Assembly (NCBI RefSeq): GCF_028330965.1
Contig: NZ_JAQMUB010000065.1
Coordinates: 1 to 35,387, forward strand
Direction of reading: 5' to 3'
Length of the DNA stretch: 35,387 nt
Source: Oscillatoria sp. CS-180
GTDB lineage: Bacteria; Cyanobacteriota; Cyanobacteriia; Phormidesmidales; Phormidesmidaceae
Position numbers and translations under genes: made by a program. The notes under the pieces are model-generated. The model did no database searches. It was not told the origin of the DNA and saw only the letters and a program-made list of their open reading frames with translations. Shown here one piece after another: positions 1-34,405 of the stretch (position 1 is its first letter; every line of letters begins with the position of its first letter).

Positions 1-1726
1 GGTGGGCACTGCCCACCGTTTCCCCTCTGGCGACAATCAGCAGCGCCACGTCCGCATCTCCGAGGATGAAGCGCAGGCGCTCAGCAGGATAGGCAGGGTC
101 GAGGGGCAGGTAGGTGGCTCCGACTTTGAGGATAGCGAGGAGGGTGATGACCAGTTCAGTGGAGCGTTCCAGGCAGAGGGCGATGCGATTGCCGGGCTGC
201 ACACCCTTTGCCATCAGGTAATGAGCCAGTTGATTGGCCTGCTGCTCAAGATCTCGGTAAGTGAGGACGATGTCTTCAAAGATGACGGCAGTGGCGTCTG
301 GATTAGCTTGGGCCTGGTCTGCAATCTGCTCATGGACGCAGCAATCAGGAATGGGCTGCTCGGTTTGGTTCCAGGCTGCGAACTGCTGATGCTCGGCGGG
401 GGTAAGCAAAGGCAGAGCTTCTAAAGGCTGATTCGGATCGGCAACCATGCCCTGAAGTATGGTTTTTAGATGACCGAGGAAGCGGTGGATGGTGGTATCA
501 GAGAAACGATCGCGGTCATAGGCCACCCGCATAGAGAGGGTTTCACCGGGGATGACAAAGAGGGCAAGGGGATAGTTGGTTTGCTCGAATCCCTGTCCTT
601 CACGGATGGTGAGGCCGCTTTTGTCATCCGCCAGAGCAGCCGTCAGAGAAACAGGGTAATTTTCGAAGACGAGTAAGCTTTCAAACAGGGGAACGCCACT
701 GGGGACGTGGCTCCAGGACTGAATATCGGTGAGGGTGCTGTAGGCATAGGTTTCGCGATCGCGCTGATGGTCCTGAATCTGTTTTAGCCAAGGCAACAGC
801 GGCATCTCTGAGGGCAGCGAGAGCCTTACAGGCACGGTGTTGATGAATAATCCCACGATGGACTCTGCACCTGGCAGCGTTGGGGGGCGTCCAGACACGG
901 TAGCCCCAAATATCACCTCTGAAGTATTGCTGTAGCGGCTGAGTAATAACGCCCAGGCTCCCTGAAGCAGGGTGTTCAAAGTGAGGTGGTGGCGTTGAGC
1001 AAAGGCATTAATGCTGGCTGTCGTGGTCTGAGACAAGGTGAGCCAGCGATCGCGATTGTCGGGTTGAGAGGATGCCGAAGTGCGGCGATCGATGCCCAAG
1101 GGCGTCGGGGCTGTAAAGCCTGCCAGGGCTTTCTGCCAGTACGTTTGAGCTGCCTGTGGATCCTGCTGCTGTAGCCAGACAATATAATCTCGGTAGGGTC
1201 TAGGAGACGGGAGAATGATAGCTTGCCCTTGGCGCTCTGCTGCGTAGAAAGCTAAGACTTCTTTGATCAAAAGGGCATTGCACCAGCCGTCCATCAGCAG
1301 GTGATGGTGGCTCCAGACGAAGCGATGGCGTATTGGACTGAGCTGGAACAGGGCACAGCGCATTAGGGGAGGCTGATCGAGGCGAAAACCCTGAACGCGA
1401 TCGCCCTGCAAAAAGGCCGCTAACTTTTCTGCCTGCTCTGATTCGGATAATAGCTGCCAGTCGGCTTCAATCCAGGGCAATTCCGCAGTCGCATGAACGA
1501 CCTGCAGGGGTTTGTCGACTTCTTCCCAATAGAAGGCAGTCCGCAGCACGGCATAGCGTTCGACAACTGCTTGCCAGGCTCGTTTGAAGGCATCAACATT
1601 CAGATGCCCTTCCAGTAAACAGCTTCGCTGTTCAAAATAGACCCCGGATTCCGGCGCATACAGCGTGTGGAACAGCATGCCCTGCTGCATGGGGGAAAGT
1701 TCGTAAATGTCCTGGACTTGAGTCAT
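1..1726 (-). CDS. NRPS, condensation (D-acyl type) plus start of adenylation domain; 3' part outside window
   Basis: This is the N-terminal 575 residues of a nonribosomal peptide synthetase that continues past position 1. The ATG at 1726 lies 4 nt after the stop of the upstream NRPS gene, so the two are almost certainly co-translated. Residues 1-20 read as a communication (COM) acceptor segment running into the C1 motif LSPMQQGMLFH. That form is typical of condensation domains that accept a D-residue from an upstream epimerization domain, and such a domain ends the preceding protein. The C3 motif HHLLMDG lies near residues 140-146, so the domain should be active. The condensation domain ends near residue 440. 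An adenylation domain follows, with LTYRDLEQQANQLAHYL and the A2-like LKVGATYLPLDPAYP visible. The window ends before the specificity residues, so the substrate cannot be read. Role: condense the D-aminoacyl chain with the next amino acid. Confidence 0.93.
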   Translation of the reverse strand, partial: MTQVQDIYELSPMQQGMLFHTLYAPESGVYFEQRSCLLEGHLNVDAFKRAWQAVVERYAVLRTAFYWEEVDKPLQVVHATAELPWIEADWQLLSESEQAEKLAAFLQGDRVQGFRLDQPPLMRCALFQLSPIRHRFVWSHHHLLMDGWCNALLIKEVLAFYAAERQGQAIILPSPRPYRDYIVWLQQQDPQAAQTYWQKALAGFTAPTPLGIDRRTSASSQPDNRDRWLTLSQTTTASINAFAQRHHLTLNTLLQGAWALLLSRYSNTSEVIFGATVSGRPPTLPGAESIVGLFINTVPVRLSLPSEMPLLPWLKQIQDHQRDRETYAYSTLTDIQSWSHVPSGVPLFESLLVFENYPVSLTAALADDKSGLTIREGQGFEQTNYPLALFVIPGETLSMRVAYDRDRFSDTTIHRFLGHLKTILQGMVADPNQPLEALPLLTPAEHQQFAAWNQTEQPIPDCCVHEQIADQAQANPDATAVIFEDIVLTYRDLEQQANQLAHYLMAKGVQPGNRIALCLERSTELVITLLAILKVGATYLPLDPAYPAERLRFILGDADVALLIVARGETVGSAH

Positions 1727-1730
1727 GGCG

Positions 1731-6692: not shown

Positions 6693-6790
6693 GTCCTATG
6701 CGGAACAGGCTGCAAAATGATAGATGAAGAAATCAACGGTTTTAACCGCAAGGTTCCAAAATTCAGCTAATGGATCGCCAAGTTAGACAA
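6693..6790 (-). other. Short intergenic gap within the operon
   Basis: A 98-nt AT-rich gap separates the monooxygenase stop from the NRPS start. A weak inverted repeat CGGTT-TT-AACCG lies in it, too small to call a terminator. An AGGAC directly precedes the NRPS ATG, closer than a usual Shine-Dalgarno. No promoter could be recognised with confidence. Confidence 0.5.
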
Positions 6791-7870
6791 TTAATAAACG
6801 CCACTAGCTATCGCAGTTCTTGACAGATGAATAGCACAATTATCCTTAAGCTGTTTGAGATAGGGTAAGGCTTGCATGACGCGATCAAAGTCTTGAATAA
6901 AATCAATCAAGCAGGCAACTTCAGTAACACCGGCTTGAGCCAATTTTTGTAGAAATGGCAAGCAGGTCTCAGGCGTTCCAATCAGTGAGCGATCGTTCAT
7001 AAATCCTTCCACCCCAAATAGTAACAGACTATCTAAGTCATCGTCAGAAAAATCTTCTAGGCTGATGGATAAACCCATTCCTTTCGCTAAGTTTTCTAGC
7101 AGGCCATAGTGAGTTTTTAGATAATCACAAAAGGGTTGCCTAACATCGGTTTTAACTTGGTCACGTTCGCTTCCCAAAAATGTATGGAGCATCAAAGAAA
7201 CGGTTTTGGAATCGGCATCATGACCATGCTTACTTAAGGATTGTTTATAGGCTTGAATTTTCGGAGCCAGTTGTTCTAATGATCCGCCTAAAAGAGAGGT
7301 CAAGATATTAGCTCCCAATCGCCCTGCTTCAATGAAAGTTTCAGTAGATTGACACGTGATCCAAGTCGGTAATTGGGGCTGAATAGGGCGCGGTAAGGAG
7401 CGGGTCGAGACGGTTTTTCCCGCTGCATCCTGAAAGTCAACGGCTTTCCCCTGCCAGAGCTGTTGCACTTGCTGAATGCCACGCCACATCTGGGCCTTTC
7501 GGCTAGCATGAGGCGTCCGCGACAGAATGAACTCGTCCATCGTCCAGCCTGAGGCAAAGGCGATCGCCACCCGTCCGTTTGAGAGATTATCAACAACGGC
7601 CCAATCCTCTGCAATCCGCACTGGGTGGTGTAAAGGCATGACCACACTGCCCGCCCGGATCTGGACATTGGCTGTTGTCATGGCTAGGGCAGCGCTAGTG
7701 ACGCAGGGATTAGGATAAAGCCCCCCGAAGGCATGAAAATGTCGTTCAGGAGTCCATAGGGCAGTGAATCCGTTGTGGTCTGCAAATTTAGCACTCTCGA
7801 TCAAGAGCTGATACTGATTAGGGCGGGCAACGGAGCCATCACCATCAAAATAGAAGAGGCTAAAATCCAT
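6791..7870 (-). CDS. Luciferase-like FMN-dependent monooxygenase, MupA/Atu3671-type tailoring enzyme
   Basis: A 359-residue free-standing flavin monooxygenase of the bacterial luciferase fold. It has the signature of the subfamily found in NRPS/PKS clusters, often as an integrated domain: MDFSLFYFDGD at the N-terminus, then WTPERHFHAFGGLYPNP (about 40-56), IRAGSVVMPLHHPVRIAEDW (about 71-90) and NGRVAIAFASGW (about 97-109). Such enzymes use reduced FMN and O2 to hydroxylate or otherwise oxidise carrier-bound intermediates. The exact reaction varies and cannot be read from sequence. The ATG at 7870 has an AGGAAA about 10 nt upstream. The gene lies between the last PKS module and the first NRPS module, so the likely substrate is the beta-keto chain or the amino-acylated chain at that junction. 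A separate flavin reductase would be needed; none is in the window. Confidence 0.9.
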   Translation of the reverse strand: MDFSLFYFDGDGSVARPNQYQLLIESAKFADHNGFTALWTPERHFHAFGGLYPNPCVTSAALAMTTANVQIRAGSVVMPLHHPVRIAEDWAVVDNLSNGRVAIAFASGWTMDEFILSRTPHASRKAQMWRGIQQVQQLWQGKAVDFQDAAGKTVSTRSLPRPIQPQLPTWITCQSTETFIEAGRLGANILTSLLGGSLEQLAPKIQAYKQSLSKHGHDADSKTVSLMLHTFLGSERDQVKTDVRQPFCDYLKTHYGLLENLAKGMGLSISLEDFSDDDLDSLLLFGVEGFMNDRSLIGTPETCLPFLQKLAQAGVTEVACLIDFIQDFDRVMQALPYLKQLKDNCAIHLSRTAIASGVY

Positions 7871-8019
7871 TCTTGGTTTTCCTATTTTCGTTAATTAGAA
7901 AGTGTGTTGATTGATGTTTTTTGATTTGTGTCTCGGTCTAATACGGTAGACATTTTCCTTCGATCTTTGTTGGCTTATGAAGTACTAGAGCCTGATTCAT
8001 GCATTCTACAGTTCGATAG
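7871..8019 (-). other. 149-nt gap before the monooxygenase gene
   Basis: This AT-rich stretch, between the PKS stop at 8020 and the monooxygenase start, is the largest gap inside the operon. It contains the monooxygenase ribosome-binding site (AGGAAA). No convincing terminator hairpin or promoter hexamer pair was seen, although an internal promoter cannot be excluded. Confidence 0.45.
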
Positions 8020-11000
8020 TCATGCTTGATGGTTAATTTGATTTTCAACATCTGCCGGCGACATGGTTTCGATTTGTTTCAACAAGTCTTCGATGGCAGC
8101 TTGATCAGCATTATCAAGCTGATTTTCCTGGACGATTTTAGCAATGCCAGCGACGGTAGGCGCTTCGAATAAAAAGGCCCGCATAGGGAGTTCGACTTGG
8201 AATTCTCTTCGCAATCGCGTCACGGCTTGAATCGCCAGTAATGAGTGTCCGCCTAACTCGAAGAAGTTGTCATGAATGCCGACTTTCTCAACGCCAAGTA
8301 AATCCTGCATGGCTTCAGCAACAGCAGCTTCAACAGCGTTTCTGGGAGGAACATAATGATTTGAAAGCTGGGATCTATTGCTGGGGTTTAACAATTCAGC
8401 TTTGTTGCTCTCTGCCAGTGTTTCTGGATGATGAATCCACTGGTCGATGCGATCGCGCAGATTTCCCGGCGATACGGCCACCTGACTCAGGTGGGGCTGC
8501 GCGAGCACTCGCTTCGTCGTTTGCCAAACCTCTTCCGGCGTCATGGCTGAATCCAACCAGGTAGAACCTGTCTGCTGTGGGGCATCATCCAAGCGGCAGG
8601 CATCCCAGTTGATGCTGAGCCACCGCGAGGGATCGTCACGATGGGCCGTTACAAGGCTGTCTAGATAGCTGCTGACCGCAGCGTAAGCTCCAAAACCAAT
8701 GCCGCCGACCACGGAGGATAGAGACGATTGGAGGAGTACAAAGTCGGGCGTTTGTTCCGCGAGAGCCGACATCAGGACTTGGATGCCTGCGATTTTGGAG
8801 CGAAACGTTTGCTTACACATCTGCGGGGTGAGTTCCGGCAGAGGGTAGCTGGCGCGATCGCCCATGACGCCAGTGTGAAAAACGCCGTGGATCTCTCCGA
8901 ACAGGTCTATTCCTTGCTCTACGGCGGTATTCACCTGCCCGGTATCTGCGAGGTCAGCGCTAAACCAGAGGTAATCTGTTCCCACGCTTCCTAAACTTTG
9001 AAGTTTGCGAATCAGCCCGCTCACCTCATGTTGAGGACCGTGGGTCGCCATCCACTGCTCCCAGTTGTCGGCAGCCGGTAGACCAGGACGACCGATTAGC
9101 ACCAACCGGGCCTGACATTCTCGCCTGAGTGCTTGAGCATAGACCAGCCCCAGCCCCTCGACTAAATCTCCGGCGATTAGATAGGTGCTTTGTGATCTGA
9201 AGGGTGATTGACGTTCAGACAGCGGCAGTGGCTCGTAAGTTTGTATCCAACGATAGCCGTCTCGGTAAGCCACGATAGGATTGGACGCCGTGAGTTCTCC
9301 ATACAAGTTGCCTTCCAGCGTCTCAAGTGACATCGCATCCGTCGTTGCTGCAACGATATCTAAGTGCCGACAGCGAACGTGGGCCAATTCTTGAGGAATT
9401 ACCTTGCACAGCCCTGATAGCATTGCCTGTTGAGGTTGAACCGCATCTGTGCCAACGACATCGTGTCCTTGGGTCGTCATAACGGTAAGGTTGGTGGAGC
9501 CAGAGCGATCGCTGGCAATCAGGGCCTGAACGAGATGCAGCACGCTATGGAAGCCCATCGTCAAATCACCAGACTCATCGGCCAGGCTCCAGCCATGAAC
9601 CCAATGGGATGGCTGCTGACCAGCGGTTTCCAGAGTTTGAATGAGGGTTTGGTAGTCCTCGGGATTGTGAGGATTGAGCGTGTAAGCCTGTTCCTGTTGA
9701 GAGAACTGTTGACCAGGTTGAACGGTGATCACCTTCTGTCCGGCTGCTATCAGCCGCTGAGCTAGAGCAGAACTGATGGTGTCCGCAGTGAAGATCCCCC
9801 AACAGTCGCTTGTGGGAGGTTCAGGTTGTGATAAGTACGACCTGCCCCAGGATGGCACATAGAACCAGTCCGCCAAATCCGCTGCCTTCGCCTCTGTTGC
9901 AGGCTCTAATCGCTCAAAGCCTTCTGGGTTCAACGGCACCCAATACCGCTGTCGTTCGAACGGGTAGGTGGGCAACGGCACCCGTCGTCTCGCTTTGTGG
10001 GCAGAGACATTCGACCATTGCACGGATACTCCGGCTAACCATAGCTGCCCCAAACTGCCCAGCATAACGGCAGTATCGGCAACAGTCTCTTGAGGATGAG
10101 GGAGCGAATTCAAAACGAGGTAAGCATCTCGTTGGGTGGGGTCCATCTCCTGATGAGCCAGTGTTTTCAAGGCGCGCCCTGGCCCCACTTCCAGCAAGAT
10201 TGGATTGGATAATTGCAATAGTTCCTGCACGTTGTCATGGAACCGCACGGGCTGTCGTAAATGCTGGGCCCAATACGCTGGGTTGGTCGCTTCTGCCGCT
10301 GTTAACCAGGTGCCCGTCACGTTTGACAGCACATCAATCTGAGGTGGGCTGAGCACCATTTGACCCAACAATGCCTTCAGTTCGGCCACGGCGGGTTCCA
10401 TCAGGGGTGAGTGAAAGCCGTGGGATGTCTTGAGCTGTCGATAGCTGATAGGTTTGGAGTCCAACAGCGACTGGAAAGCGGTAATCGCCGTTTCTGTGCC
10501 CGATACAGCACAGAGTTCTGGCCCATTGACTGCCGCGATCGCCACATCATTCGGCAATAAAGCTGCCAATGCCGCCTCCGACAACGCGACCGACAGCATT
10601 GCGCCCGTTGGACAATCCTGCATCAATTGCCCCCGCGCGGTGACCAGCTGTAGTCCATCCTCCAGAGAAAAGACTTCGGCAACACAGGCCGCTACATATT
10701 CCCCAATACTGTGTCCAATCAATGCCTGGGGTTCAATGCCCCAAGAGCGCCAGAGCTGAACCAGAGCGTATTCGAGCGCGAAGAGGGCAGGTTGGGCGAA
10801 TGCAGTTTGGTGAATGGGGGCTGGAGGTTGGGGGTTGAGAGAGTCTGAATTTTGAATTTTGAATTTTGTAGGGCTTTGCCCTTCCCGGAGGGTAGTTTGA
10901 ATGTCGTCTCCGTAGAGCACCTCTAGGAGGTCAATGTCGTCATCTGCCAGAATCGCAGCGCAACGGTCTATGGCCTGCCGGAAGACAGGCTCAGTGTCGT

Positions 11001-20594: not shown

Positions 20595-20602
20595 GAGTTT
20601 GC

Positions 20603-23600
20603 CTAATTGAGTAAGTCTTCGAGATCGGCCAGTTTTTGATCAAGTTGAGCCTCTAAATCTGCCTCCGATGGCAAATCTTCGACGCTGTCTTCAGGATCAG
20701 CGTGAGTCACATCTGGGACTCGCTCAGTTTTGGGGGATAACGGCTCTGCCAGTAGTTGCTCAGTCAGATACGCTAGCAGTCGATCAACTGTGGGATAGTC
20801 GAAGGCTAGGGTAGCGGGCAGCGAACAGTCCAAACTCGCTTGCAGGCTGTTCTTCAGCTCCATTGCCGTCAGGGAATCCAGCCCCAAGTCGAAGAAGCCC
20901 TGCTGCCGATCCAGTTCTTCTGGGGCAAAGCCCAAAACTTGACTGATCTGATTACAGACGTGGGTATCCAACAGGTGTTGCTGTTGGTCTTTGGGGGCGG
21001 CTGCCAACTGTTGGCGGAAAGCCTCTCGCTGGGGTTTCTGAGACCGAGTATGACTGCTTTTAGTTTGATGAAAAGCAGCCTGCCAAAAGGCTTCTAGGAA
21101 GGAAGACTGCCGTAGATGCCCCTGATGGAGAAAAGTCGGCCAGTTAATCGGCACAATGCCAATCTGAGGAAGCGACTGCGACCAGATCTGTGCTAACTGC
21201 TGTAGCCCTTGCTCTGGAGCAATTAACTCGATACCGTGAAGCCCAGCCAGCCCATTACCCCGCTGATACTTCAACGCTGAGCCTACCGTCGACCAGGCCC
21301 CCCAATTGAGGCTGAGACCCGGCAGTCCTTGCGATCGCCGATAGTGAGCCAAGCCATCCAGAAAGGCATTGGCTGCCGCATGGTTGGCCTGTCCTGGTGA
21401 TCCTAACAAAGATGCCGCTGAAGAGAAAAGGATAAAAAAGTCGAGTGGCAAATCTTGAGTGAGCTGATGCAGGTTCCAAGCGCCCTCGACCTTAGGGGCT
21501 AGGACCCGCTCAAACGCATCCCAAGAAAGCTGTTCCAGTCGGCCATCGCTCAACACACCCGCCCCGTGAACTACTCCCTGTAGCGGATAGGGCGACTCAG
21601 CAATACGCTGTAGTAGCGCCACCAATGCCTCAGAATTGCTCACGTCCACCGCTGCCGTTTCAATAATGGCTCCCTGCGTTGACCAAACCTGAATTTGCGC
21701 CTGCACCGCTGCTGTTGGTTCATGACGACTGATCAGCAGTAGATGACGAGCGCCCTGGGCAATCATCCAGTCCGCAACCTGGAGACCCAGTCCGCCTGTA
21801 CCGCCTGTGATCAAATAAGTGGCATCGGCGTGGATAGAGAGAGCAGGCTGTTCTGTATTATGGGTAATGCTTCGCGCGGGCAAGGTCTTGTGTTGTTCGT
21901 TATTCGTTCTTTGTTCTGCGGCGAATGAGGCAGGCTCTCCACTATCCGTTGCTCCGGTCGTTAGTATGATTTTCCCGATGTGCTGCGCCTGCTGCATAGT
22001 CCGAAAGGCTTGAGTGGCTTCACTTAAGCGGAAAGTTGTGTAGGGTAAGGGGTGCAGCAGGCCGGATGCAAACTGCTGGTGTAGGGTTTGCAGCAGGGAC
22101 TGGATCAGGTCGGGCTGTTCCTGGCAGAGGGCTACCAGGTTGATAGGAAAATATGATGAGTCAGGGGGAGGGGGCAGATCGCCGAGTCCCAGTTCAATAA
22201 AACGACCGCTCTGGCACAGCACCTGAATGCTTTTGTCGCGGAACTCGCCTGCTAGCGAATTGAGGACAACATCAACGCCTTCGCCTTGGGTCAGGGCCAT
22301 GACCTCGTCGGCAAAATCGAGGGTGCGAGAGTTCAAGATATGGGTGATGCCGAGCGATCGCAGTGTTTCCCATTTGCTAGGACTGGCCGTTGCTATGATC
22401 TCAGCACCGACAGACTGCGCGATTTGGATAGCAGCCTGCCCAACTCCACCGGCAGCCGCATGAATGAGAATGCGATCGCTGGCCTTAATCTGGGCTAACT
22501 GCACTAGGCTATAGTAGGCCGTCAAAAACGTGACCGGAATCGTGGCTGCGGCCTCCGGAGATAGCGCTGCTGGAACAGGAATCACCATCGCTCGATGCAC
22601 GGTGACGTACTGACCGAAGCTGTTAGACGCGATCGCCATCACGGGCTGCCCAACACCCAAATCCTGGACGGCTTCTCCAGCGGCGACAATTTCGCCGACG
22701 CATTCACAGCCCAGTACGGGTTCGCCAGGATATTGGCCCAGCGCCGTTAGGACATCCCGAAAGTTCAGTCCGGCTGTGGCCACTCGAATCTCAACTTCAT
22801 CCGCGGCAGGAGACCGCCGCTCTACAGGCAAAAAGGTTAGGTTTGCCAACGTTCCCGGCTCTGATAAGGTCAGCCGTACGGAATCATAGGGGGTGACCTG
22901 AACTGGGGTGTAGGGCTGCAAGCGGGCCACTCGACGCTGGTGGGCTTGCAGACTGACGTTTTGCTCAGGGGAGTCGGCCAGCAGTTCTGCGGTCAGGGAG
23001 TCGACAGCAGTGGTGTCAGTGCTATCGAGGTCTATACAACTACAGCGGAGTTCGGGATGTTCGAGAGCCACTGTTTTAGCCAGTCCCCAGAGGGGCGATC
23101 GCGCTAATCCAGTCTCGGTAATGCTCAACGGAGTGGCCTCCTGAGTCACAAAGTAAAGGCGAGGAACTGAGGATAGATTGGCTTCGAGCAGCGCCTGTAC
23201 CAGATGCAAGCCGTGACGGCAGGCTTCTTTAGAGGCTTCAGCAAGAGCATCAGAATTGGTAGCAGGTCCAGTTAGATAAATGACGCCTTGCCAGTGAGAC
23301 TTCATTTGCAAAATTTGCAAGAGTTGCGCTTCTAAATCCGAAGTTGACCAATTGAGGGCAAGCTGATCTTCCAAGCTGTTGGAGGGAGCGAAGGTGACCA
23401 ATAAAGGGGACTGCCCTTTGAGCTGAAGACCGTCCGCTAACGATTTGCCCATCTCCCAACAGTCACACAGGATTAACCAATCGGCAGGTGCTGAGGACAA
23501 TTCCACCTCTTCACGTCGCTGCCCCACAACCACTGCCTGAGGTAAGCTCGGTGCCGCCGTTACCTCATCTGACTTAGGAGAAGTATCTGGCTGAAGAATC

Positions 23601-26600
23601 GCCGGGGTGAATCCACTCTCCTGCAACAGGGATTGCCATTGAGCTGCTGACAGCAGCGGATGGCGGGGCCGCAGATCGCGATCAGCAAATTTCCACCAGC
23701 CTTCCGTTAACCCAAAAATCAGGTCTAGCCAGGTTAAGGATTCTGTTCCCTCCAGCAGAATGAGTTCACCACCGGGAGCCAGCAGTTGACGAACGTGACC
23801 TAGAGTCTGTCGTAGATCCGCTGTGGCATGAAGGACATTAGCCGCAATCACAAGATCAAAAGGCTGCTGAAATCCTTGCTCGATGGGCGATCGCTCAATA
23901 TCCAACAGGTCATAACGCATAAAGGGATAGGCTTGAAAGCGCTCCTTAGCCTGACTCAGGAACAGCGGCGAAACATCGGTGAAAACGTATTCCACCCCAT
24001 GGAGATGAGGCAACAAATGAGCTGTTGTACCGCCGGTGCCAGCCCCAATTTCTAGAATTCGAATGGGGCGTTGGGCAGCGGCGATCGCCGCTGAAACGGC
24101 CTTTTGCACGAGCGTGTTCATCACCTGTGCACCGGGTGAGGACTCATATAGCTGGGTCAAGTCGCTCAGGTTACCGTCTGGGAAAAGTAGCGTTAGCGGG
24201 TCGAGATCTCCGGTCAGAACAGCCGCCAAATTTTCGCCGCAGCGGGTGATGAGGGTCAGCTCAGCGTTGGCAATTGCAGATTGTGGATTGTGGATTTTAG
24301 ATGGGGTGTCTTCTGGCTTCTGTTCGATGCCGTCTACTTTTGCCAAGAGATATTGGAAGAATCGTTCGTGTTGAGGGGCAATTTGTAGCTGCTGGGCGAT
24401 ATCCGGGTGGGTTACTGTCTGGCTCAGCTGTGGCGACCAGCCCAGTTTCTCCAAGGCTTGAGTGATGTAGTGAAGGCTGAGCGCTTCTAGCTGGGGCAGA
24501 AGGCTTTGATAGGCAACAAATTTGGGTTGAGAGACGAGTTGGGTAAAGTCAGGGGCGATGCGATCGCGAATAGCCTCTGGTGCTTGCAGAAAATCTAGAG
24601 GCTGAGCTGATAAGGGCTGAGGCTGCCAGGCCACTTGATACAGCCAGGTCGTGTCGGACTCGTTCGATTGCTGGGAGTCTCCCAAAAGCTCAGGAGAAAC
24701 TGGCTGTAGCTGCAAGCCTTCTATCGCAGCGATGATAGTGCCATCTGCTGCCAAAAGATTGATGTCAATTACTGGATTGAACTGTCTGTCTTCAGGCATT
24801 GCAGTAGGCCGCTGCTGGGCATAAACCCACTGCACGCTGCGGTTGGCTGGATTTGGCCAGCTCAAGCGTTGAATACTAATCGGTAGATAGGTTGTGGTGA
24901 TCCCATGCCAATCAAGGGTTGCCCCTGCCAGCTGTAAACCAGCGTCCAGCAGAATTGGATGAACGTGGTAATGCTCTGAATCAGCCTGTTGCCGATTGGA
25001 GAGGCAAACCTGCGCTAGGGCTTCTCCAGGTCTTCGCCAGATCCGCTGCAGGACGCGGAATTCAGGACCATAGCAAATGCCCCACGCTTGGTACAGGCTG
25101 TAGAAGACATCAAGGGAGATCTCGTTAGTCAGTTCTTCCTGCTTTGCCGTAATGGAAAAGGCCGTCAGAACGGGTGAAGTTGACTCGATTTCACCGGTCG
25201 CGTTGCATTGCCAGGTCGAGGCAGAAGAGGCTGTCTGACTAAAGATTTCGAACTTAAACTGCTCGGTAGACCGAGGGGTCAGAACAGTTTGGATGAGAAC
25301 AGTCTCTAGTTTCGACAATACCAGGGCTTTGGGAAAGGAGACGTCGCAGAGTGTTAGAGATGGATAAGGCAGGGAATGGGCGGCTGCGATCGCGATTTCT
25401 AGATATCCCGCCGCAGGCATGACCACCGCCCCAAATATCTGATGCTCCTTCAAATAGACTGGGGTATCCTGGCTGACCTGCGACTGAAAGTAGCGCACGG
25501 TCTCTCCAGCTAGGGGAAGCGGCGATCCCAACAAGGGATGACTGGGGGAGGTCAAAGAAGGCTCTGGTAGAGAGGCGAGACCTGATGCTTTTCCAGGCAG
25601 ATCGGTTTCGACCCAGTAGCGCTGGCGCTGAAAGGGGTAGTTGGGAACCTGAACAATGCGGCGGGGATAAGCGCGATCGAATCCAGCCCAGTCGATAGTC
25701 GCGCCTAACATATACAGCTTTCCAAGGCTGGTCAATAGGGTTTGCCAATCGGCATCAGGGCGCAAACTTGGCAGCCACAAAGTATCGACTTCGGGCAAAC
25801 AGGCTTGTCCCATGACAGACAGCACAGGCTTTGGCCCAATTTCGATGAACGTGTTGTAGTCCTCTGCCGCTAGCGTCTCCATGCCCGCCGCAAACTGTAC
25901 GGACTGACGAACATGCTGAACCCAGTAATCGGCACTGGCAATTTCTGTCGAAGTAATCTGTCCGGTTATGTTAGAAACCAGCTCTAACTGAGGCGGCCTG
26001 TAGCTTACTGTGCTGGCCACTTCTTTGAAGTCGGCCATCATCGGCTCCATCAGCGCTGAATGAAAGGCATGGGAAACTGGCAGCGGCTGCGTTTTGATTC
26101 CCTGCTCAGTTAGCGTCGCGGTTACTGAGGCAAGCGCAGACTGCTCACCCGAAATCACCGTGGCTTCAGGGCCATTTATGGCGGCAATGGAAATATCAGG
26201 GGGCAGGATTGGAGAGAGGCGATCGCGAGCGGCCTTCACCGCCACCATGCCGCCCCCGACGGGCAGCGCCTGCATCAACCGCCCCCGGGTAGCCACCAAT
26301 CGCAGTCCGTCTTCTAGGCTAAAGACCCCAGCAAGACAGGCGGCGACATATTCTCCAAGGCTGTGCCCCATGACGCCATCGGGTTCGATGCCCCAGGCCA
26401 GCCAGAGTTGGGCGAGGGCATATTCGAGGGCGAAGAGGGCGGGTTGAGTGTAGGCGGTTTGGTGGAGGGGGGTTGGGGGTTGGGGGTTGGGGGAGTCTGA
26501 ATTTTGAGTTTCGCTTCCATAGAGCGCATCCAGAAGATCGATCCCTTCGGCTGTCAGAAGGTCAGCACAGCGGTCCAGGGCCTGTTGGAAGACGGGTTCG

Positions 26601-28390
26601 GTGTCGTACAGCTCGCGGCCCATGTTGGGGTATTGAGAGCCTTGTCCGGTGAAGAGAAAGGCGATTTTGTGATGGAGAGCGCCCTGGGTCAGGGAAGTGG
26701 GAGCGGGCGGGGTGTCTAGGAGATTGTCGAGTTGCTGTCTCAGGTGAGGCAAGTCGGCTGCGATCAGAGCACAACGATGGTTGAAGTGCGATCGCCCCAC
26801 GTTGGCAGAGAAGGCAATATTAGGCAGTTCTGCCTCCACGCCTGAGTTCAACCAATCTCGATAACGCTGAACGAGCTGACGTAGAGCCTCATCGCTACGG
26901 GCAGAAAGCGCCAGCAAGTGTAGTGGCCGCTGGCTGTCACGCAATTCTGCGGCTCTGAACGTGAGGTCAGGCAGTTTGAAGTCATCTTGCGGGGCTTCTT
27001 CCAATATCAGATGAAGATTGGTGCCACTCATTCCGAAAGAACTCAGTCCGGCTCGTTTAGCCTCTGCCGTAGTCGGCCAAGGTGTGAGCTGGGTGGGCAC
27101 GGAAACAGCGAGTTGATCCCAGGGAATATAGGGGTTGGGGGACTGTAGATGAAGGTGAGGCGGAATGTGCTGATGTTGCAGCGACAGGATGACTTTAATC
27201 AAGCCGGCGACGCCAGCAGCCGATTCAAGGTGCCCAATATTCGTTTTGACGGAGCCGATGAGCAAAGGGGTCGGACGTTGACCCATGACCTTATCGAGCG
27301 CCAAGACTTCAATGGGGTCGCCGAGGCGGGTGCCAGTGCCGTGGACTTCGACATACTGCACCTGCTGAGGGTAAACTCCGGCGTTCTCTAAGGCCTGCTG
27401 CAAAACGGCTTCCTGAGCCGCACCATTGGGAGCGGTTAGGCCATTGCTAGCGCCATCGTGGTTAACGGCAGAGCCACGCACTAAGGCTAGAATCGGATCT
27501 TGATTATCAATAGCATCAGAGAGGCGCTTCAGTACGACGATGCCGCAACCTTCACCGCGCCCGTAACCATCAGCCGCAGCATCAAAGGTTTTGCAGCGAC
27601 CATCGGGAGCCAGGGCTTTGAGTTTACAAAAGCCGATGGTGGGTTCAGGCGACAGCATCAGGTTGACGCCCCCAGCCAGCGCTAGATTAGACTCACCACT
27701 GCGGAGGCTTTGACACGCCAAATGCACGGCTAACAATGAGGAAGAGCACGTCGTATCGAGCTGCATTGTGGGGCCGTGGAACCCGAAGGTGTAGGCTAAT
27801 CGACCCGCAGCAATGCTGCGAGTGTTACCTAAGCTGCTGTGAGCATCAATACGAGTCAGGTCGCCTGATCGAACACTGAGTTGGGCATAATCGTCGAAAC
27901 TGACGCCAACGAAGACACCAGTGCGAGTGCCGCGCAAGTCAAAAGGCGGCTGTCCGGCATTTTCTAAGGCAGTGTAGCTGACTTCTAGCAGGAGTCGCTG
28001 CTGTGGATCTAAGCTCCGAGCCTCGCGGGGAGAAATGCCGAAAAACTGCGGATCAAATTGATCCACGTCATCAATGAAGCCGCCATAGCGGGTATACATC
28101 TTACCGGGAGCGTCTGCATCGGGATCGTAGAGCGCTGCGACGTTCCACCGCTGGTCAGGAATTGCGGTAATGGCATCGCAGCCATGACGCAGCAGGTCCC
28201 AATAGGCCTCAAGGGTGTTGGCTCCACCCGGAAATCGACAAGCCATACCGACGATCGCAATCGGTTCGTTTTGCTGCTGTCGTACCGCTTCCAACTCCGA
28301 TCGCAGCGATCGAATCTGTAAAGTGGCTTCTCGAAGCAGGTCACGATAGCTGTTTGGGTGAGGATTGGAAGTGCGATCGCGGGATTGCAT
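20603..28390 (-). CDS. Highly reducing type I PKS module KS-AT-DH-cMT-ER-KR-ACP (first extension)
   Basis: A 2595-residue single-module PKS with the same architecture as its downstream neighbour. KS (about 40-465): Cys215 in DTTCSSSL, His350 in VEVHGTGT, His387 in NIGHLE. AT: Ser677 in GHSLGE and HAFH 774-777, malonyl-type. DH: His983 in [10 protein letters not shown] and Asp1149 in LLDAGLQ. C-methyltransferase: [10 protein letters not shown] at 1445-1454. [12 protein letters not shown] near 1978-1987. [10 protein letters not shown] near 2195-2202, Lys2300, Ser2324, His2337 in place of Tyr, Asn2341. ACP: Ser2506 in GLDSLTA. The predicted reaction is malonyl extension of the FAAL-loaded chain, alpha-methylation and full reduction. 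The ATG shares one base with the stop of the loading gene (TGATG), indicating coupling. The N-terminal helix (about 12-39) and the acidic C-terminal helix ([17 protein letters not shown]) look like docking elements. Confidence 0.96.
21836..21919 (-). repeat. Repeat-derived ER-KR linker tract, copy 2
   Basis: The coding strand begins AGAACAA, AGAACGA, ATAACGA, ACAACAC and continues through CGAAGCATTACCCATAA. It encodes residues about 2158-2185 between ER and KR. It is clearly related to the tract at 14022-14105 but diverged by substitutions, so the two linkers share a common repeat origin. Confidence 0.7.
24260..24331 (-). repeat. Heptanucleotide tract in the linker before the cMT domain, copy 2
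   Basis: The coding strand contains 7-mers AAAATCC, ACAATCC, ACAATCT, GCAATTG, encoding the segment around residues 1354-1377 ahead of [14 protein letters not shown]. It occupies the same position as 16542-16616 in the paralogue but uses different units. Confidence 0.7.
25981..26668 (-). repeat. AT-domain block nearly identical to 18200-18888
   Basis: This is the partner of the near-identical block in the second reducing PKS. Identity starts near the segment coding the C-terminal part of the AT core and continues through GHSLGE to the [15 protein letters not shown] motif. The AT loop (26462-26515) is the only part that is strongly different. A recent recombination or gene-conversion event between the two genes is the simplest reading. 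Confidence 0.85.
26462..26515 (-). repeat. Heptanucleotide tract in the AT loop of the first reducing PKS
   Basis: The coding strand reads AAAATTC, AGACTCC, then CCCAACC three times, CCCCTCC. It encodes residues about 626-643 ([15 protein letters not shown]), directly after DALYG. The peptide resembles the insert at the same site of the KS-AT-KR PKS ([15 protein letters not shown]), although the AT background differs. Confidence 0.88.
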
Positions 28391-31300
28391 CAGGTTCCCC
28401 TCCCTTGCAGGGCCGCCAGTTCCGCGGCCAAGGCATCAGCCATCTCAGTTTCGCTGAGGTCGTCAAGTGCTGTTGGATTGGAGGCAAAAGAATCAGGTCT
28501 AGCGCTGGTCTCGACCCCCTTATATCGTGGTGTTGTTCCACCTAGCTCAGAGGATGTCTGAGCGCTTGCATAAGTGGCCAAATGCGCTGCCAATGCCGCG
28601 ATGGTGGGGAAATTCCAGGCGAGGGTGGCATTCAGAGGGTGCTTGAGTTCCAAAAAGTCCTCTAGATCTTGGGCCAGTTCTACGGCCATAACAGAATCGA
28701 CACCGTAGTCTGCAAACGCTTTATCGATATCCATATCTGAAGTGGAAAGCTTGAGATGATGGGCGAGCCATTGGACTAACCACTGCTCCAGAACTCTGGT
28801 TGTTTGAGGCTGAAGGCGCGGCTGGCTATTGACGGAGGGACGTGAATCAGTGCGGCTCAAGCCTGTTTCTCGATGGTCCTCTTTGTCAACCGGAGGCTTA
28901 GGTGGCACCGATTTCCCACGCCCGTTATCCGTCACATTAGGGGACTCTTCTGCCAATCGCTGTTGTAGAAAAGCATCCAAACGGTGATCTTCTCCAGCTA
29001 GGGTTTGTTCAATGTCGCCGATGGTGTCGGTATAGCTGGTAACCCAGTCGCTCGTAGTGCTAGCTGCCGCAGCAACGGCTTCGTTGGGATTAGGAACCAG
29101 AGCCTGAGAGAGTTTTTGCTCAAAATAACACTGGGTCCACTCTAAGGATCTGGGACAAGTGGATACGGATGCTTGAATGGCTAGGAGCAGCGCGATCGCA
29201 CTCAACTCACCAACTGCCAGATACGCCTGACGCCGTGCTATGACCGCATCCGTAGAAAGGTGCTGATACCGCAACACAATATCGTCTGCGCTTGTAAACA
29301 ACCGCTCCGCCAACTTGGGTGCCTGTAGCTCCTGACTCAGGAAAGGCTGCAAACCTGAGCGGGCATTAAACACCTCTGCCCCCAGATGCATCGCCAGGGT
29401 TTCTGTCGGTCCCTCAAAAATACGCAGGACACGAGCATCCCGCAGGATTTGTGGAGCTAAATTCGTTTCGATATAGCCCCGTCCGCCCAAGCACTGCACC
29501 AAATCATCTGCCGCTTGCCAGTAAAACTCTGGCGCTAGGATTTTGCAGGTCGTGTAGGCTGCGGGCGGCACGACCCTTCTCTGATCTAATCGCTGCCCGA
29601 TCCAGTCCACCAGCGCGGACAAAGCCGAAACCTGGGCAGTGAGGCCGCTCAAACGGGTCAACAGCACTGGATTCTCCAATAGCCGTCCGGTGCTGACGGT
29701 GCGACGATCGCCATAGCGCACCATCAGCTGAGCGCAGCGCTTCATCCCCCCAATGCAGGCAGCCGCGATCGTCAGCCGGCCATACATCATGGCATCCTGC
29801 GCCACGGTCATCCCTTGACCGGGCTGCCCCAAAAGCTGAGCGTCGGAAACAGCGACTCCATCTAGATACACCGTATTTTGCACCATACTTCGCATACCCA
29901 TCGTTAGCGCTTCTGGTCCTTGCCGGAGACCAGAGGCTCCCTTACTAATCGCAAAACCGCTGATGCCCGAGGCGTCTTCATGGCGTACAAAAACATTGAT
30001 CAGCCCAGCCCATGCGGCTGAGCCACTCCAAACTTTCTCACCGTAGAGCCGCCAGTTGTTGTTGGTATCTACCACAAGATGAGATTGAATTGCATTAGGA
30101 TTTGATCCGGCTCCAGGTTCCGTCAGTGCAAAGGCCGCCAGTTCTCGACCTGTGGCCAGTCGCGGTAACCAGTCCGCTTTCAAGGACGGCGTCGCAGCGT
30201 GCAGAATAGGCCGAATACCCAGCACATTGTTGAGTCCGACGAATAGCGCCAGAGTCGGATCGATCGCACCCAGTTGCTCCATCACTCGCAACATATCCTG
30301 ATGGCCCAAACCGAGTCCGGCATACTCAGGGGGCACCTGCATTCCCAGCAGTCCCTGATTGCCAAAATCAAGGACGATGCTCGGTGACAGGCAGCGCCGC
30401 TCGTCCATCAATCGCGAATTGATCGATTCGTGAGCATACTGCCGTAGCCACTGGATTAAGGATTCAGTCCGATCAGGATCGCCGTTGGTGGACTGCGATG
30501 ATGCCTCTTGCTCTGCTGGACTGGGCAACTGAGACACCTGAACTGATTGATCGATTGACCACTGTCCAACAGGGTCGAGCGTATGGTTTTCAAATCCGGC
30601 CTGACAAGCATGGCGCTGTACCTTGCCGCTCGTGGTTTTGGGCAGACTCCCTGGCTTTAGCAATACGATTCCATGGACCTGTAGCCCATGCTGCCGAGAA
30701 ATCGCCGCACGGATGGCAGCAATGACGGCACCTGTATCTAGGGAACGCAACGCGGTTCGCCTGACCTCTTGGACCACCATCAGCCGTTCTTCACCGTTCA
30801 CCTCCAGACCGAAGGCCGCCCCTACTTGAGCTGCCACTGCCTCATGGCTCTGGGCTACCGTCTGCTCAATATCTTGGGGATAGTGATTGTGTCCGCGAAT
30901 GATGATCAGGTCCTTAAGTCGTCCAGTCACGAACAACTCTCCATCTTGCAGAAAGCCCAAATCCCCGGTCCGCACAAAAGGCCCAGCACCGTCAGCGAGT
31001 TTTGCGGCAAAGGTTTCCTGAGTCGCTTCAGGATTCTGCCAATATCCCTGAGCAATGCTAGGACCCGTCAGCCAGATTTCTCCGACTTGACCAGACGGGC
31101 AGCGCTGATGAGTTTCAGGGTCGGCGATCGCAATAGATTGCCCAGCCGTTGTCCGCCCACAACTCACGAACTGCCGTACATCCTCAGTTTGCGATCGGGA
31201 CACGACTTGTCCTTTTGCTAGGGCAGTCTTGTCCACAGAATAAGTTGGAGGTTGAGCGGTCTTGACACCACCCGACACGAAAAGAGTTGCTTCCGCCAGA

Positions 31301-32355
31301 CCATAGCAGGGATAAAAAGCTGTTGACCGAAAACCGCAGCCAGCAAACGTGTCGGAAAACTGCTGTAGAGTTTCAGCCCTGACGGGTTCCGCGCCGATAA
31401 AGGCCACTTCCCAACGACTCAAATCGAGATCCTGGCGCTGCTCCGGTGTAATCCTTTGCAAACAGCGCTCGTAGGCAAAATTGGGGCCGCCACTGGTCGT
31501 ACCACCAAAGACGGAGATGGCTTGCAGCCACCGCAGGGGTTTGCGGAGAAATGAAGCAGGCGACATCAGCGTGACTGGAAAGCCGCCATAAAGGGGCTGT
31601 AGAATGCCGCCAATTAGACCCATATCATGATGGGGGGGAAGCCAGATGACGCCGTGACTATCCGGAGAATGACCGAACTGCTCCTGAATGATCCCCAGAT
31701 TGTGCATCAGGTTACGATGGCTGATCATTACTCCCCGGGGCTGACTCGTGGAGCCAGAGGTGTATTGCAACACAGCAATATCGTCAGCAGCAATCAGAGG
31801 CTGCTCCCAGGACTGACTGGGCAAATTCACTGCTGAAAATTGGGGCGCAATGCAGGCAATGGCATCCTGGCGCAGATCTGTCATCGTCGCCGCCAAAGAC
31901 TGCACCTTAGGCAACTGCCCAGGTGTAGTCACAATCGCCCGTGGCTTGGCATTGGCAACAATATATTGCCAGCGCTCTAGTCCCTGATGGCGACCAGGTA
32001 GCGGCACTGGAACCGCGATCGCCCCAGCCTGCACGCAGCCCAAAAAGGCAGCGACAAATTCTAGCCCTGCTGGCAACGCCAGCAGAACGGGCTGATGGGC
32101 AAATTCGGACAGGTGGATAGCGATCGCCTGCGATCGTCGATACAGCTCTGCATAACTCCAACCCAATCCATCGCTATGAGCAACCTCAGCCTCATCGGGC
32201 AGAAACTGGTAGGCCAAATGCTCCGGCTGATGCATCGCCCGCTGCTGCAAAATGTCTATCAGATGAGTGCTGACTGAATTCAATCCTTGTCCAGTTTCAC
32301 TACTATTATCGTGGTCAAATTCTCGCACCATTGACAGCCCTGTTCGACCTAGCAT
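28390..32355 (-). CDS. Loading protein: fatty acyl-AMP ligase, acyl-CoA-dehydrogenase-like domain, ACP
   Basis: A 1321-residue three-part starter enzyme. The fatty acyl-AMP ligase spans about 28-590: P-loop YTSGSTSQPRGV (198-209), the FAAL-like stretch RKPLRWLQAISVFGGTTSGG (271-290), YGLAEAT (351-357), RTGDLG (462-467) and Lys578 in KTTSGK. It should adenylate a free fatty acid and load it on the carrier. An acyl-CoA-dehydrogenase-like flavodomain spans about 630-1000, with FALTEPGAGS (742-751) and Glu981 in FEGPTE at the usual catalytic-base position. Its inferred role is alpha,beta-desaturation of the ACP-bound chain. The C-terminal ACP (about 1190-1262) has Ser1221 in GVDSVMA. The final helix (EMADALAAELAALQG) resembles a docking element. 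First gene of the operon. The ATG at 32355 lacks a good Shine-Dalgarno; the ATG at 32331 (MVREFD) has AGGG six nt upstream and may be the true start. Confidence 0.94.
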   Translation of the reverse strand: MLGRTGLSMVREFDHDNSSETGQGLNSVSTHLIDILQQRAMHQPEHLAYQFLPDEAEVAHSDGLGWSYAELYRRSQAIAIHLSEFAHQPVLLALPAGLEFVAAFLGCVQAGAIAVPVPLPGRHQGLERWQYIVANAKPRAIVTTPGQLPKVQSLAATMTDLRQDAIACIAPQFSAVNLPSQSWEQPLIAADDIAVLQYTSGSTSQPRGVMISHRNLMHNLGIIQEQFGHSPDSHGVIWLPPHHDMGLIGGILQPLYGGFPVTLMSPASFLRKPLRWLQAISVFGGTTSGGPNFAYERCLQRITPEQRQDLDLSRWEVAFIGAEPVRAETLQQFSDTFAGCGFRSTAFYPCYGLAEATLFVSGGVKTAQPPTYSVDKTALAKGQVVSRSQTEDVRQFVSCGRTTAGQSIAIADPETHQRCPSGQVGEIWLTGPSIAQGYWQNPEATQETFAAKLADGAGPFVRTGDLGFLQDGELFVTGRLKDLIIIRGHNHYPQDIEQTVAQSHEAVAAQVGAAFGLEVNGEERLMVVQEVRRTALRSLDTGAVIAAIRAAISRQHGLQVHGIVLLKPGSLPKTTSGKVQRHACQAGFENHTLDPVGQWSIDQSVQVSQLPSPAEQEASSQSTNGDPDRTESLIQWLRQYAHESINSRLMDERRCLSPSIVLDFGNQGLLGMQVPPEYAGLGLGHQDMLRVMEQLGAIDPTLALFVGLNNVLGIRPILHAATPSLKADWLPRLATGRELAAFALTEPGAGSNPNAIQSHLVVDTNNNWRLYGEKVWSGSAAWAGLINVFVRHEDASGISGFAISKGASGLRQGPEALTMGMRSMVQNTVYLDGVAVSDAQLLGQPGQGMTVAQDAMMYGRLTIAAACIGGMKRCAQLMVRYGDRRTVSTGRLLENPVLLTRLSGLTAQVSALSALVDWIGQRLDQRRVVPPAAYTTCKILAPEFYWQAADDLVQCLGGRGYIETNLAPQILRDARVLRIFEGPTETLAMHLGAEVFNARSGLQPFLSQELQAPKLAERLFTSADDIVLRYQHLSTDAVIARRQAYLAVGELSAIALLLAIQASVSTCPRSLEWTQCYFEQKLSQALVPNPNEAVAAAASTTSDWVTSYTDTIGDIEQTLAGEDHRLDAFLQQRLAEESPNVTDNGRGKSVPPKPPVDKEDHRETGLSRTDSRPSVNSQPRLQPQTTRVLEQWLVQWLAHHLKLSTSDMDIDKAFADYGVDSVMAVELAQDLEDFLELKHPLNATLAWNFPTIAALAAHLATYASAQTSSELGGTTPRYKGVETSARPDSFASNPTALDDLSETEMADALAAELAALQGRGT

Positions 32356-33964: not shown

Positions 33965-34405
33965 TTGCAGACCAAACGGATGTATTTAGAAAGCAAAGCA
34001 ATAGAGCTGCTAGCGCTGCTCATGGAAGAAGAAACCGAAATTCATCAGGACGACGCTCAGACTGCTTTGCTCGATCTGGACTATCGCGATCGCATCCACT
34101 ACGCCCAAGAAATCCTGCTAAAAAATCTAACCGATCCACCGTCACTGATGGAGTTAGCGCAACAAATCGGGATGTGTGACTACAACCTCAAACGAGGCTT
34201 TAAGGAGGTATTTGATAGCACCGTATTTGACTATTTGCGCGATCGCCGGATGGAAAAAGCCCAACAGTTGCTGTTAGATGGGCAACTGAAGATCGCGACG
34301 GTCGCCCGTGCCGTCGGTTACGATAGCCCCACCTCATTCAATGCCGCCTTTAAGCGTAAGTTCGGGATGAGCCCAAAGGTTTATCAACTTTCAGTACGAA
34401 AGTAA
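33965..34405 (+). CDS. AraC-family transcriptional regulator, N-terminally truncated
   Basis: The 146-residue product, starting at a TTG, contains the two helix-turn-helix motifs of AraC regulators at about 50-142 (PSLMELAQQIGMCDYNLKRG, then KIATVARAVGYDSPTSFNAA and FKRKFGMSPKVYQL). The style resembles the PchR-like AraC proteins common near siderophore genes in cyanobacteria. Family-like sequence (PASFIDELRRC, then MYLESKAIELLALL) continues in frame upstream of the TTG back to the desaturase stop at 33868, with no ATG. The normal N-terminal sensor domain, some 150 or more residues, is missing, so this is probably a remnant, though the DNA-binding part could still be made. A 42-bp piece of it is repeated exactly at 35195-35236. 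It ends 36 nt from the convergent toxin gene. Confidence 0.75.
   Translation: MQTKRMYLESKAIELLALLMEEETEIHQDDAQTALLDLDYRDRIHYAQEILLKNLTDPPSLMELAQQIGMCDYNLKRGFKEVFDSTVFDYLRDRRMEKAQQLLLDGQLKIATVARAVGYDSPTSFNAAFKRKFGMSPKVYQLSVRK
34084..34125 (+). repeat. 42-bp direct repeat, copy inside the AraC gene
   Basis: This stretch begins TCGCGATCGCATCC and ends CTGCTAAAAAA. It is identical to 35195-35236 and encodes the DRIHYAQEILLK segment just before the first helix-turn-helix. It includes a HIP1 octamer. Confidence 0.93.

What the first reader, a model, noticed from the sequence alone, without database searches (positions are those of the whole stretch)
1..32355. Hybrid lipopeptide assembly line predicting a 4,6-dimethyl-3-oxo/hydroxy acyl cap on a D-Asn-like residue
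Collinear reading: FAAL-loaded fatty acid, two malonyl extensions each with DH, cMT, ER and KR, one malonyl extension with a doubtful KR, then C-A-PCP-E with an Asn-like code, then a D-accepting C domain. This predicts R-CH2-CH(CH3)-CH2-CH(CH3)-CO(or CHOH)-CH2-CO-(D-Asn-like)-X. I do not recognise a named cyanobacterial pathway with this exact order.
Basis: partly seen in the sequence, partly recalled or inferred. Interest (0 to 1): 0.75.

Follow-up and report, generated by a model that had tools for sequence, protein, structure and literature searches.

The report
Cyanobacterial lipopeptide assembly line, first half
The window holds the first half of a roughly 75-kb enzyme assembly line that several distantly related cyanobacteria share and that is predicted to build a fatty-acid-capped peptide of ten amino-acid building blocks whose structure I could not match to any described compound.

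Summary
The reading holds up. The window (whole contig C5) encodes FAAL-ACAD-ACP, two fully reducing C-methylating PKS modules, a KS-AT-KR-ACP module with a degenerate KR, C-A(Asn-like)-PCP-E, and a C domain of the after-E type. The window is about half of the line. Relatives show that it continues on contigs C81, C90 and C46. The full predicted product is acyl-D-Asn-Gly-D-Val-Gly-(C2)-Ala-thiazole-Gly-D-Ala-Ser-X, where X is met by a CmlA-like diiron hydroxylase, a thioester reductase, a methyltransferase and an aminotransferase. All 14 of 388 class genomes with a close LLM also match the diiron-reductase gene. Ten library searches listed no described product; MIBiG was not available. It is an orphan, conserved lipopeptide pathway built from known kinds of parts.

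The parts
28390..32355 (-). Loading protein FAAL-ACAD-ACP (1321 aa): AMP ligase 31039-32247, acyl-CoA dehydrogenase 29374-30468, ACP 28579-28785
   Evidence: Pfam AMP-binding, Acyl-CoA_dh_N/M/1, PP-binding; FAAL models; ACAD FEGPTE motif and ACP GVDSV
20603..28390 (-). PKS1 (2595 aa) KS-AT-DH-cMT-ER-KR-ACP; cMT core 23762-24055, KR 21290-21823
   Evidence: Pfam, motifs, cMT position
12756..20594 (-). PKS2 (2612 aa) KS-AT-DH-cMT-ER-KR-ACP; cMT core 16038-16331, KR 13476-14009
   Evidence: Pfam, motifs, cMT position
8020..12759 (-). PKS3 (1579 aa) KS-AT-KR-ACP, KR (8599-9189) with degenerate cofactor loop
   Evidence: Pfam; motif comparison with orthologs
6791..7870 (-). Stand-alone FMN luciferase-like monooxygenase (LLM), probable alpha-hydroxylase of the PKS3-bound chain
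   Evidence: TIGR04020 499 bits against cut-off 244; nearest solved chain 6KET PuwE, 366 bits
1731..6692 (-). NRPS1 (1653 aa) C (5187-6539)-A (4074-5132, code DATKIGEVG, Asn-like)-PCP-E (1803-3164)
   Evidence: Pfam, genome C/A positions, code, TIGR01720 marker of E domains
2..1726 (-). NRPS2, start only: C (383-1717, after-E type), A (20-322, cut by contig end; Gly in orthologs)
   Evidence: Pfam; start Met read from the translation; orthologs
33026..33868 (+). Fatty acid hydroxylase superfamily protein (PF04116), conserved neighbour of the line; possible tailoring enzyme
   Evidence: Pfam; 78-79% in three Halomicronema loci (one a 113-aa piece) and one Leptolyngbya locus with the FAAL; 58% after the aminotransferase in Acaryochloris and 56% in G159

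Best explanation
A type I PKS/NRPS assembly line for a linear lipopeptide. FAAL activates a fatty acid onto the fused ACP and the fused ACAD desaturates it (inferred). PKS1 and PKS2 each add malonate, C-methylate and fully reduce it. PKS3 adds malonate, leaving 3-hydroxy or 3-oxo, and the LLM hydroxylates C2 (inferred by homology). NRPS1 adds D-Asn. The line continues off the contig: Gly, D-Val, Gly, a ketide unit (turning that Gly into a 4-amino-3-hydroxy- or 3-oxobutyrate unit), Ala, Cys cyclised and oxidised to thiazole, Gly, D-Ala, Ser and residue X (code DAPTLGAVN). X is probably beta-hydroxylated by the CmlA-like diiron domain. The thioester reductase fused to it releases an aldehyde, which the aminotransferase converts to an amine and the methyltransferase methylates (last two steps inferred). 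Shown: domains, order, conservation. Not shown: any chemistry.
For: Domains and active-site motifs. LLM. BLASTN collinearity of a complete line in Leptolyngbya sp. SIOISBB with C5, C81, C90, C46 in that order; C81 and C90 ends share the same repeated A-domain sequence. Same module order and matching A codes in G001 (SIOISBB), G246 (Acaryochloris IP29b_bin.176, one contig) and G034 (one contig), in the NRPS part of G159, and in Halomicronema C176 and Lyngbya aestuarii as far as their contigs reach. C domains after E are the NRPS2 type in 19 of 19 cases, others in 0 of 42. A5 pocket residues equal McyA 8JBR in the printed alignment. Pfam on C81/C46 proteins: nitroreductase-type oxidase in the Cys module, CmlA_N 300 bits, TubC_N docking, NAD_binding_4 reductase, class III aminotransferase, methyltransferase; 8A90 494 bits, CmlA 4JO0 415 bits, AerJ docking, MxaA reductase. 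Reductase-(methyltransferase)-aminotransferase recurs at the end of two other lines with no LLM in the stretches read and in G096, which has no LLM match at 1e-100. Precedents: puwainaphycin 2-hydroxy, cyanochelin B 2,3-dihydroxy acyl chain and reduced C-terminus.
Against: No product is known. The gaps between C5/C81 and C90/C46 are not sequenced, so A2 and the start of the Ser module are taken from orthologs. A10 in this genome is split by a frameshift. The aminotransferase is closer to the mycosubtilin beta-aminotransferase (419 bits) than to GSA aminomutases (182 bits), which fits a beta-amino acyl cap instead. The KR of PKS3 may be dead, and the window copy lacks the Asn its orthologs have. 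The KRs of PKS1/PKS2 carry His for the catalytic Tyr. Eight genomes show a diiron-half match without a LLM of 68% identity or more, so the two genes are not always together. The ACAD role is inference.
Confidence: 0.6

Rival explanations
1. Puwainaphycin-like cap: the PKS3 KR is inactive and the stand-alone aminotransferase acts in trans on the 3-oxo group, so the cap is 3-amino-2-hydroxy-4,6-dimethyl and the C-terminus leaves as aldehyde or alcohol.
For: The aminotransferase's nearest solved relative is the mycosubtilin synthase aminotransferase; [quoted passage not shown] PKS3 KR degenerate.
Against: All nine stand-alone aminotransferase copies in the eight genomes lie within about 2 kb of a reductase match; three further copies sit in long open frames (1645-3133 aa) whose surroundings I did not read. 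The KR Tyr and Ser are kept in the six PKS3 orthologs read.
Confidence: 0.25
2. One reading: 3-oxo or 3-hydroxy-4,6-dimethyl, saturated, unsubstituted C2, with LLM and ACAD idle or acting elsewhere.
For: Core PKS domains predict it. In G159 and G140 the LLM is present although no PKS3 lies directly before it, so its link to PKS3 is not absolute.
Against: LLM at 68% identity or more in 14 of 388 genomes, directly after a PKS3-type module in 8 lines (7, one); ACAD kept in the three relatives whose loading protein lies in the stretches.
Confidence: 0.1
3. The pathway makes a compound already described under a name the searches did not reach (subscription literature or MIBiG).
For: The line is shared by a named strain, Lyngbya aestuarii BL J (that it is cultured is recalled), and much of the cyanobacterial chemistry literature is not in the library.
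Against: Ten searches listed none (several lists were capped); the FAAL review's table of cyanobacterial products (passage) holds no product that I recognise as this.
Confidence: 0.2
4. The line in this genome is decaying and makes nothing.
For: Frameshift in A10 on C46, whereas the frame is open in the five relatives read; PKS3 KR Asn lost.
Against: The window's megasynthase frames are open; the break in A10 may be an assembly error, as these contigs end in repeated sequence.
Confidence: 0.07

Closest known systems
Puwainaphycin/minutissamide pathway (puw)
   Same: FAAL start, PKS with DH-cMT-ER-KR, then a PKS module with flavin monooxygenase before the NRPS (PMC4219810, passages)
   Different: Two C-methylating modules, FAAL fused to ACAD-ACP, KR rather than embedded aminotransferase in PKS3, Asn-like not Val first, thiazole module, reductase rather than the thioesterase shown in the puw figure legend
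Cyanochelin B pathway (ccs) of Leptolyngbya NIES-3755
   Same: FAAL, PKS with flavin monooxygenase and KR giving a 2,3-dihydroxy acyl chain, Cys cyclisation, reduced C-terminus (PMC12628792, section 5 read)
   Different: Methyl on C2 only, beta-hydroxy-Asp siderophore residues made by another hydroxylase type (DOX), methyl-thiazoline next to the acyl chain, ethanolamine end
CmlA-type diiron beta-hydroxylases
   Same: CmlA_N 300 bits (cut-off 25); 415 bits over about 520 residues to CmlA 4JO0 and 494 bits to 8A90; HNHQDH motif in the translation
   Different: Here fused through a TubC-type docking domain to a thioester reductase; substrate unknown
Reductase plus aminotransferase release, as in myxochelin MxcG/MxcL (recalled)
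   Same: Thioester reductase followed by a class III aminotransferase; MxcG is the second NCBIfam match of the reductase half
   Different: The aminotransferase is nearer to the mycosubtilin beta-aminotransferase, and a methyltransferase lies between

Membership tests
Hybrid FAAL-initiated PKS/NRPS lipopeptide line | FAAL loading domain with carrier protein | tested here: met
   (FAAL models match below their full-length cut-offs)
Hybrid FAAL-initiated PKS/NRPS lipopeptide line | Collinear PKS then NRPS modules with intact core motifs | tested here: met
   exception: PKS3 KR
Hybrid FAAL-initiated PKS/NRPS lipopeptide line | Acylated peptide product | not testable with these tools
   no chemistry available
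Puwainaphycin/minutissamide pathway | PKS-embedded aminotransferase in the module before the first NRPS module | tested here: not met
   Pfam finds none in PKS3 or NRPS1; an aminotransferase gene lies at the far end
Puwainaphycin/minutissamide pathway | Valine as first amino acid and cyclising thioesterase | tested here: not met
   Asn-like code; the end is a thioester reductase
TIGR04020 secondary-metabolism LLM | Score above curated cut-off | tested here: met
   499 against 244 bits
CmlA-type diiron beta-hydroxylase (on C46) | CmlA_N domain, full-length match to CmlA and the HxHxDH metal motif | tested here: met
   motif read in the translation; other metal ligands not checked
Thiazole-forming module (on C81) | Cy domain with DxxxxD, Cys-type A code, oxidase domain | tested here: met
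   DVLIGD read in the translation (motif recalled), code DLYNLSLIW, nitroreductase-family domain 51 bits against 23.5
Cyanochelin siderophore pathway | Asp beta-hydroxylase (DOX) and beta-OH-Asp modules | tested here: inconclusive
   no Asp code among the nine A codes read in this genome (code meanings recalled); the DOX domain was not searched for by itself

The most novel reading that the evidence does not exclude
A widespread, undescribed cyanobacterial lipopeptide family: a conserved ten-residue core with one thiazole and one ketide-extended glycine, released reductively as a beta-hydroxylated, methylated terminal amine, onto which lineages fit different fatty caps; the two C-methylating modules reduce through ketoreductases that have His where the catalytic Tyr should be.
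Probability: 0.5. Interest if true: 0.6.

Novelty: new member of a known kind. Interest (0 to 1): 0.47.

Why it matters
If the prediction holds, cyanobacteria of at least three families by the tool's labels (f1, f26, f32), plus Lyngbya aestuarii, make one conserved peptide, and three more families (f4, f24, f40) carry its marker genes. That argues for a shared ecological use and gives a concrete, mass-searchable structure that can be tested in a named strain. The line also pairs parts not usually seen together (FAAL fused to ACAD; diiron hydroxylase fused to reductase, followed by methyltransferase and aminotransferase), so the product would test how such endings work.

Tried and rejected
Considered contig C4 (partial A-domain hit) as continuation: it is a menE-like gene (named from its neighbours by eye). 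Considered C46 as the direct continuation of C5 because it starts inside an A domain: rejected by collinearity with SIOISBB, which places C81 and C90 between. My first reading of the A codes (note) was off by one residue at positions 299/301; corrected from recalled codes, recomputed by alignment, and consistent with the printed McyA alignment. The codes have errors at position 278 and are not used for this line. Cyanochelin pathway considered and set aside. The FAAL review was searched for a FAAL-ACAD fusion: 'acyl-CoA dehydrogenase' has 0 occurrences in its text. KR activity was not tested by structure prediction.

Amino-acid names attached to codes (Asn, Gly, Val, Cys, Ser) are recalled from published specificity tables and come from no call; for Ala the McyA structure sequence shows the same pocket residues. 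That 8A90 is FrsH and that MxcL aminates are recalled.

Papers: PMC4219810 passages; PMC12628792 passages and section 5; PMC11837247 passages; PMC13252402 outline and abstract; all others only as search listings, several of them capped (for example 10 of 300, 12 of 123, 12 of 53).

Limits of the counts: the 388 genomes include the window's own genome and its nearest relatives, and the match list was cut by the tool. In SIOISBB two A domains (A7, A9) were unreadable because of frameshifts. In G159 and G140 the FAAL and C-methylating PKSs were not found in the stretches read. The KR count rests on a regular expression, and loci overlap (L139/L045), so at least one KR may be counted twice.
Full report
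What the window is. The window is the whole of contig C5 (35387 bp) of a 6.53-Mb cyanobacterial genome in 102 contigs. The genus, by the tool's labels, holds genomes that share places with Leptolyngbya sp. SIOISBB (G001 = G010) and uncultured Halomicronema MAGs (G002 = G008, G003 = G007). Everything of the line from 32355 down to 2 runs on the minus strand.

Check of the reading. Pfam finds, in order, AMP-binding, acyl-CoA dehydrogenase (N, middle and C domains) and a carrier domain in one 1321-aa protein; two 2.6-kaa PKS proteins with KS, AT, DH, methyltransferase, ER, KR, ACP; a 1579-aa KS-AT-KR-ACP; a 359-aa luciferase-like monooxygenase; a 1653-aa C-A-PCP-E; and a C-A fragment that runs off the contig. 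Core residues are present in the two reducing modules.

Doubtful KR. The KR of PKS3 has AGDLVEGLG where PKS1/PKS2 have TGG(T/L)GGLG. The same altered loop, with Tyr kept, is in PKS3 of SIOISBB, Halomicronema, Acaryochloris, G034 and Lyngbya aestuarii, and a similar one in the later PKS4. Among these six the window copy alone has Ser in place of the Asn after the Tyr (YAAVS against YAAAN or YTAAN); the more distant G347 has Tyr there. Whether C3 is hydroxyl or oxo therefore stays open.

Where the line goes. A complete line in SIOISBB matches, in order, C5, C81, C90 and C46 of this genome (BLASTN). It spans about 76 kb there (aminotransferase at 7209209, FAAL start at 7285646) and 72 kb in Acaryochloris. 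C5, both ends of C81 and one end of C90 lie in nearly identical A-domain stretches; the C81 start and C90 end carry the same sequence. Ordered domains: FAAL-ACAD-ACP; two times KS-AT-DH-cMT-ER-KR-ACP; KS-AT-KR-ACP; LLM; C-A1-PCP-E; C-A2-PCP-C-A3-PCP-E; C-A4-PCP; KS-AT-KR-ACP; C-A5-PCP-Cy-A6-Ox-PCP; C-A7-PCP-C-A8-PCP-E; C-A9-PCP; C-A10-PCP; diiron-docking-reductase; methyltransferase; aminotransferase. Pfam confirms the C81 PKS, the two NRPS genes around it with carrier domains and a nitroreductase-type oxidase, and the three C46 genes; carrier domains on C90 and the front of C46 were read from translations only.

Codes. Nine pocket residues were read by alignment: A1 DATKIGEVG, A3 DAFWLGGTF, A4 and A7 DILQLGLIW, A5 and A8 DLFNNALTY, A6 DLYNLSLIW, A9 DVWHISLID, A10 DAPTLGAVN. 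A2 is cut in this genome and reads DILQLGLIW in SIOISBB, Halomicronema C176, Acaryochloris, G034, G159 and L. aestuarii. The relatives show the same series with up to two changes per code (for example A3 DALWIGGTF in Acaryochloris, A6 DLYNSSLIW and A8 DLFNAALTY in G034), some of them in the last positions where the alignment may slip. L. aestuarii was read for the first six and Halomicronema C176 for the first five, where their contigs end; A7 and A9 of SIOISBB are frameshifted. From recalled specificity tables these mean Asn, Gly, Val, Gly, Ala, Cys, Gly, Ala, Ser and an unknown residue. For Ala the McyA structure sequence has the same pocket residues. C domains after E domains were best matched by the NRPS2 C domain in 19 of 19 cases (one is the seed itself) and the other 42 by the NRPS1 C domain, which supports D-residues at positions 1, 3 and 8.

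Distribution. In 388 genomes of the class, 14 hold a LLM at 68% identity or more, and all 14 also have a match to the diiron-reductase protein at 1e-60 (13 in the diiron half, G007 only in the reductase half). They fall in six families by the tool's labels (f1, f4, f24, f26, f32, f40). Against a strict pairing, eight further genomes listed have a diiron-half match without such a LLM (G347, G244, G096, G384, G084, G148, G309, G234). G347 has a different peptide but the same ending after a DAPTLGAVN module. G159 and G140 have LLM and the peptide line with no FAAL or C-methylating PKS in the stretches read; in G159 a PKS3-like gene lies after the aminotransferase. So the core peptide looks more constant than the cap.

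How the cap is probably made. FAAL and ACP load a fatty acid; chain length cannot be predicted here. The ACAD keeps its FEGPTE motif; a 2,3-desaturation of the starter would end up as C8=C9 after three extensions (inference). Two rounds of malonyl extension, methylation and full reduction give methyls at C4 and C6. PKS3 sets C3. The LLM scores twice the TIGR04020 cut-off, and its nearest solved relative is PuwE, whose paper assigns the monooxygenase and aminotransferase to the 3-amino-2-hydroxy group (PMC4219810, passages). Cyanochelin B shows a 2,3-dihydroxy chain from a line with a flavin monooxygenase and a KR (PMC12628792, section 5 read).

How the end is probably made. The 1045-aa protein of C46 has CmlA_N, a TubC-type docking domain and a reductase and matches 8A90 (494 bits) and CmlA (415 bits), AerJ and MxaA. 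A beta-hydroxylated residue X released as aldehyde is the simple reading. The aminotransferase beside it is nearer to mycosubtilin's aminotransferase than to GSA aminomutases, so a role on the 3-oxo acyl chain is possible. Against that, reductase and aminotransferase stand side by side at the end of two other lines with no LLM in the stretches read (G010 C2, 40 kb; G148 C21, 27 kb), and in G096, which has no LLM match at 1e-100 and is 88% complete. I give the terminal amine the better odds.

Novelty. Ten searches of the paper library listed no paper that I recognised as describing this line; several lists were capped. The FAAL review's product table (passage seen) lists no product I can equate with it. 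Subscription papers and MIBiG are not covered. Each part is of a known kind; the combination and its conservation are what is new. I file it as a new member of a known kind.

Noticed in passing
window 13476-14009 and 21290-21823; loci: KR domains of the C-methylating modules have His where the catalytic Tyr stands in EryAI KR1 (alignment): 21 of 21 KRs with a cMT upstream have His, against 4 of 22 with no cMT detected (regular expression, slight overlap of loci).
   Followed up: partly
window 33026-33868: A fatty acid hydroxylase superfamily gene is kept beside the FAAL or at the other end of the line in relatives, so it may tailor the product.
   Followed up: partly
L039 (C46) about 3467-3664: The tenth A domain is split by a frameshift in this genome; the frame is open there in the five relatives read.
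   Followed up: partly
G000 C6 39-108 kb (L150-L153): A second large NRPS/PKS region with its own diiron homologue holding one TAG stop (C6:77723-79294, 51% identity) and several Val-like A codes.
   Followed up: no
G159:C1 3.005-3.125 Mb; G140:C103 (L213): The peptide line occurs with no FAAL or C-methylating PKS in the stretches read; the cap-making part seems exchangeable.
   Followed up: partly
G347:C1 330001-390000 (L198-L200): A different peptide line shares the ending DAPTLGAVN module, diiron-reductase, methyltransferase, aminotransferase and also has a PKS3-type module plus LLM.
   Followed up: no
window 34442-34861 and 33965-34405: A PIN-domain ORF and an AraC-type regulator fragment lie beyond the line.
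   Followed up: no
A-domain and linker regions in C5, C81, C90, C46: Coding stretches rich in Asn/Thr/Gln or Pro/Ser/Thr interrupt A domains and PKS linkers.
   Followed up: no
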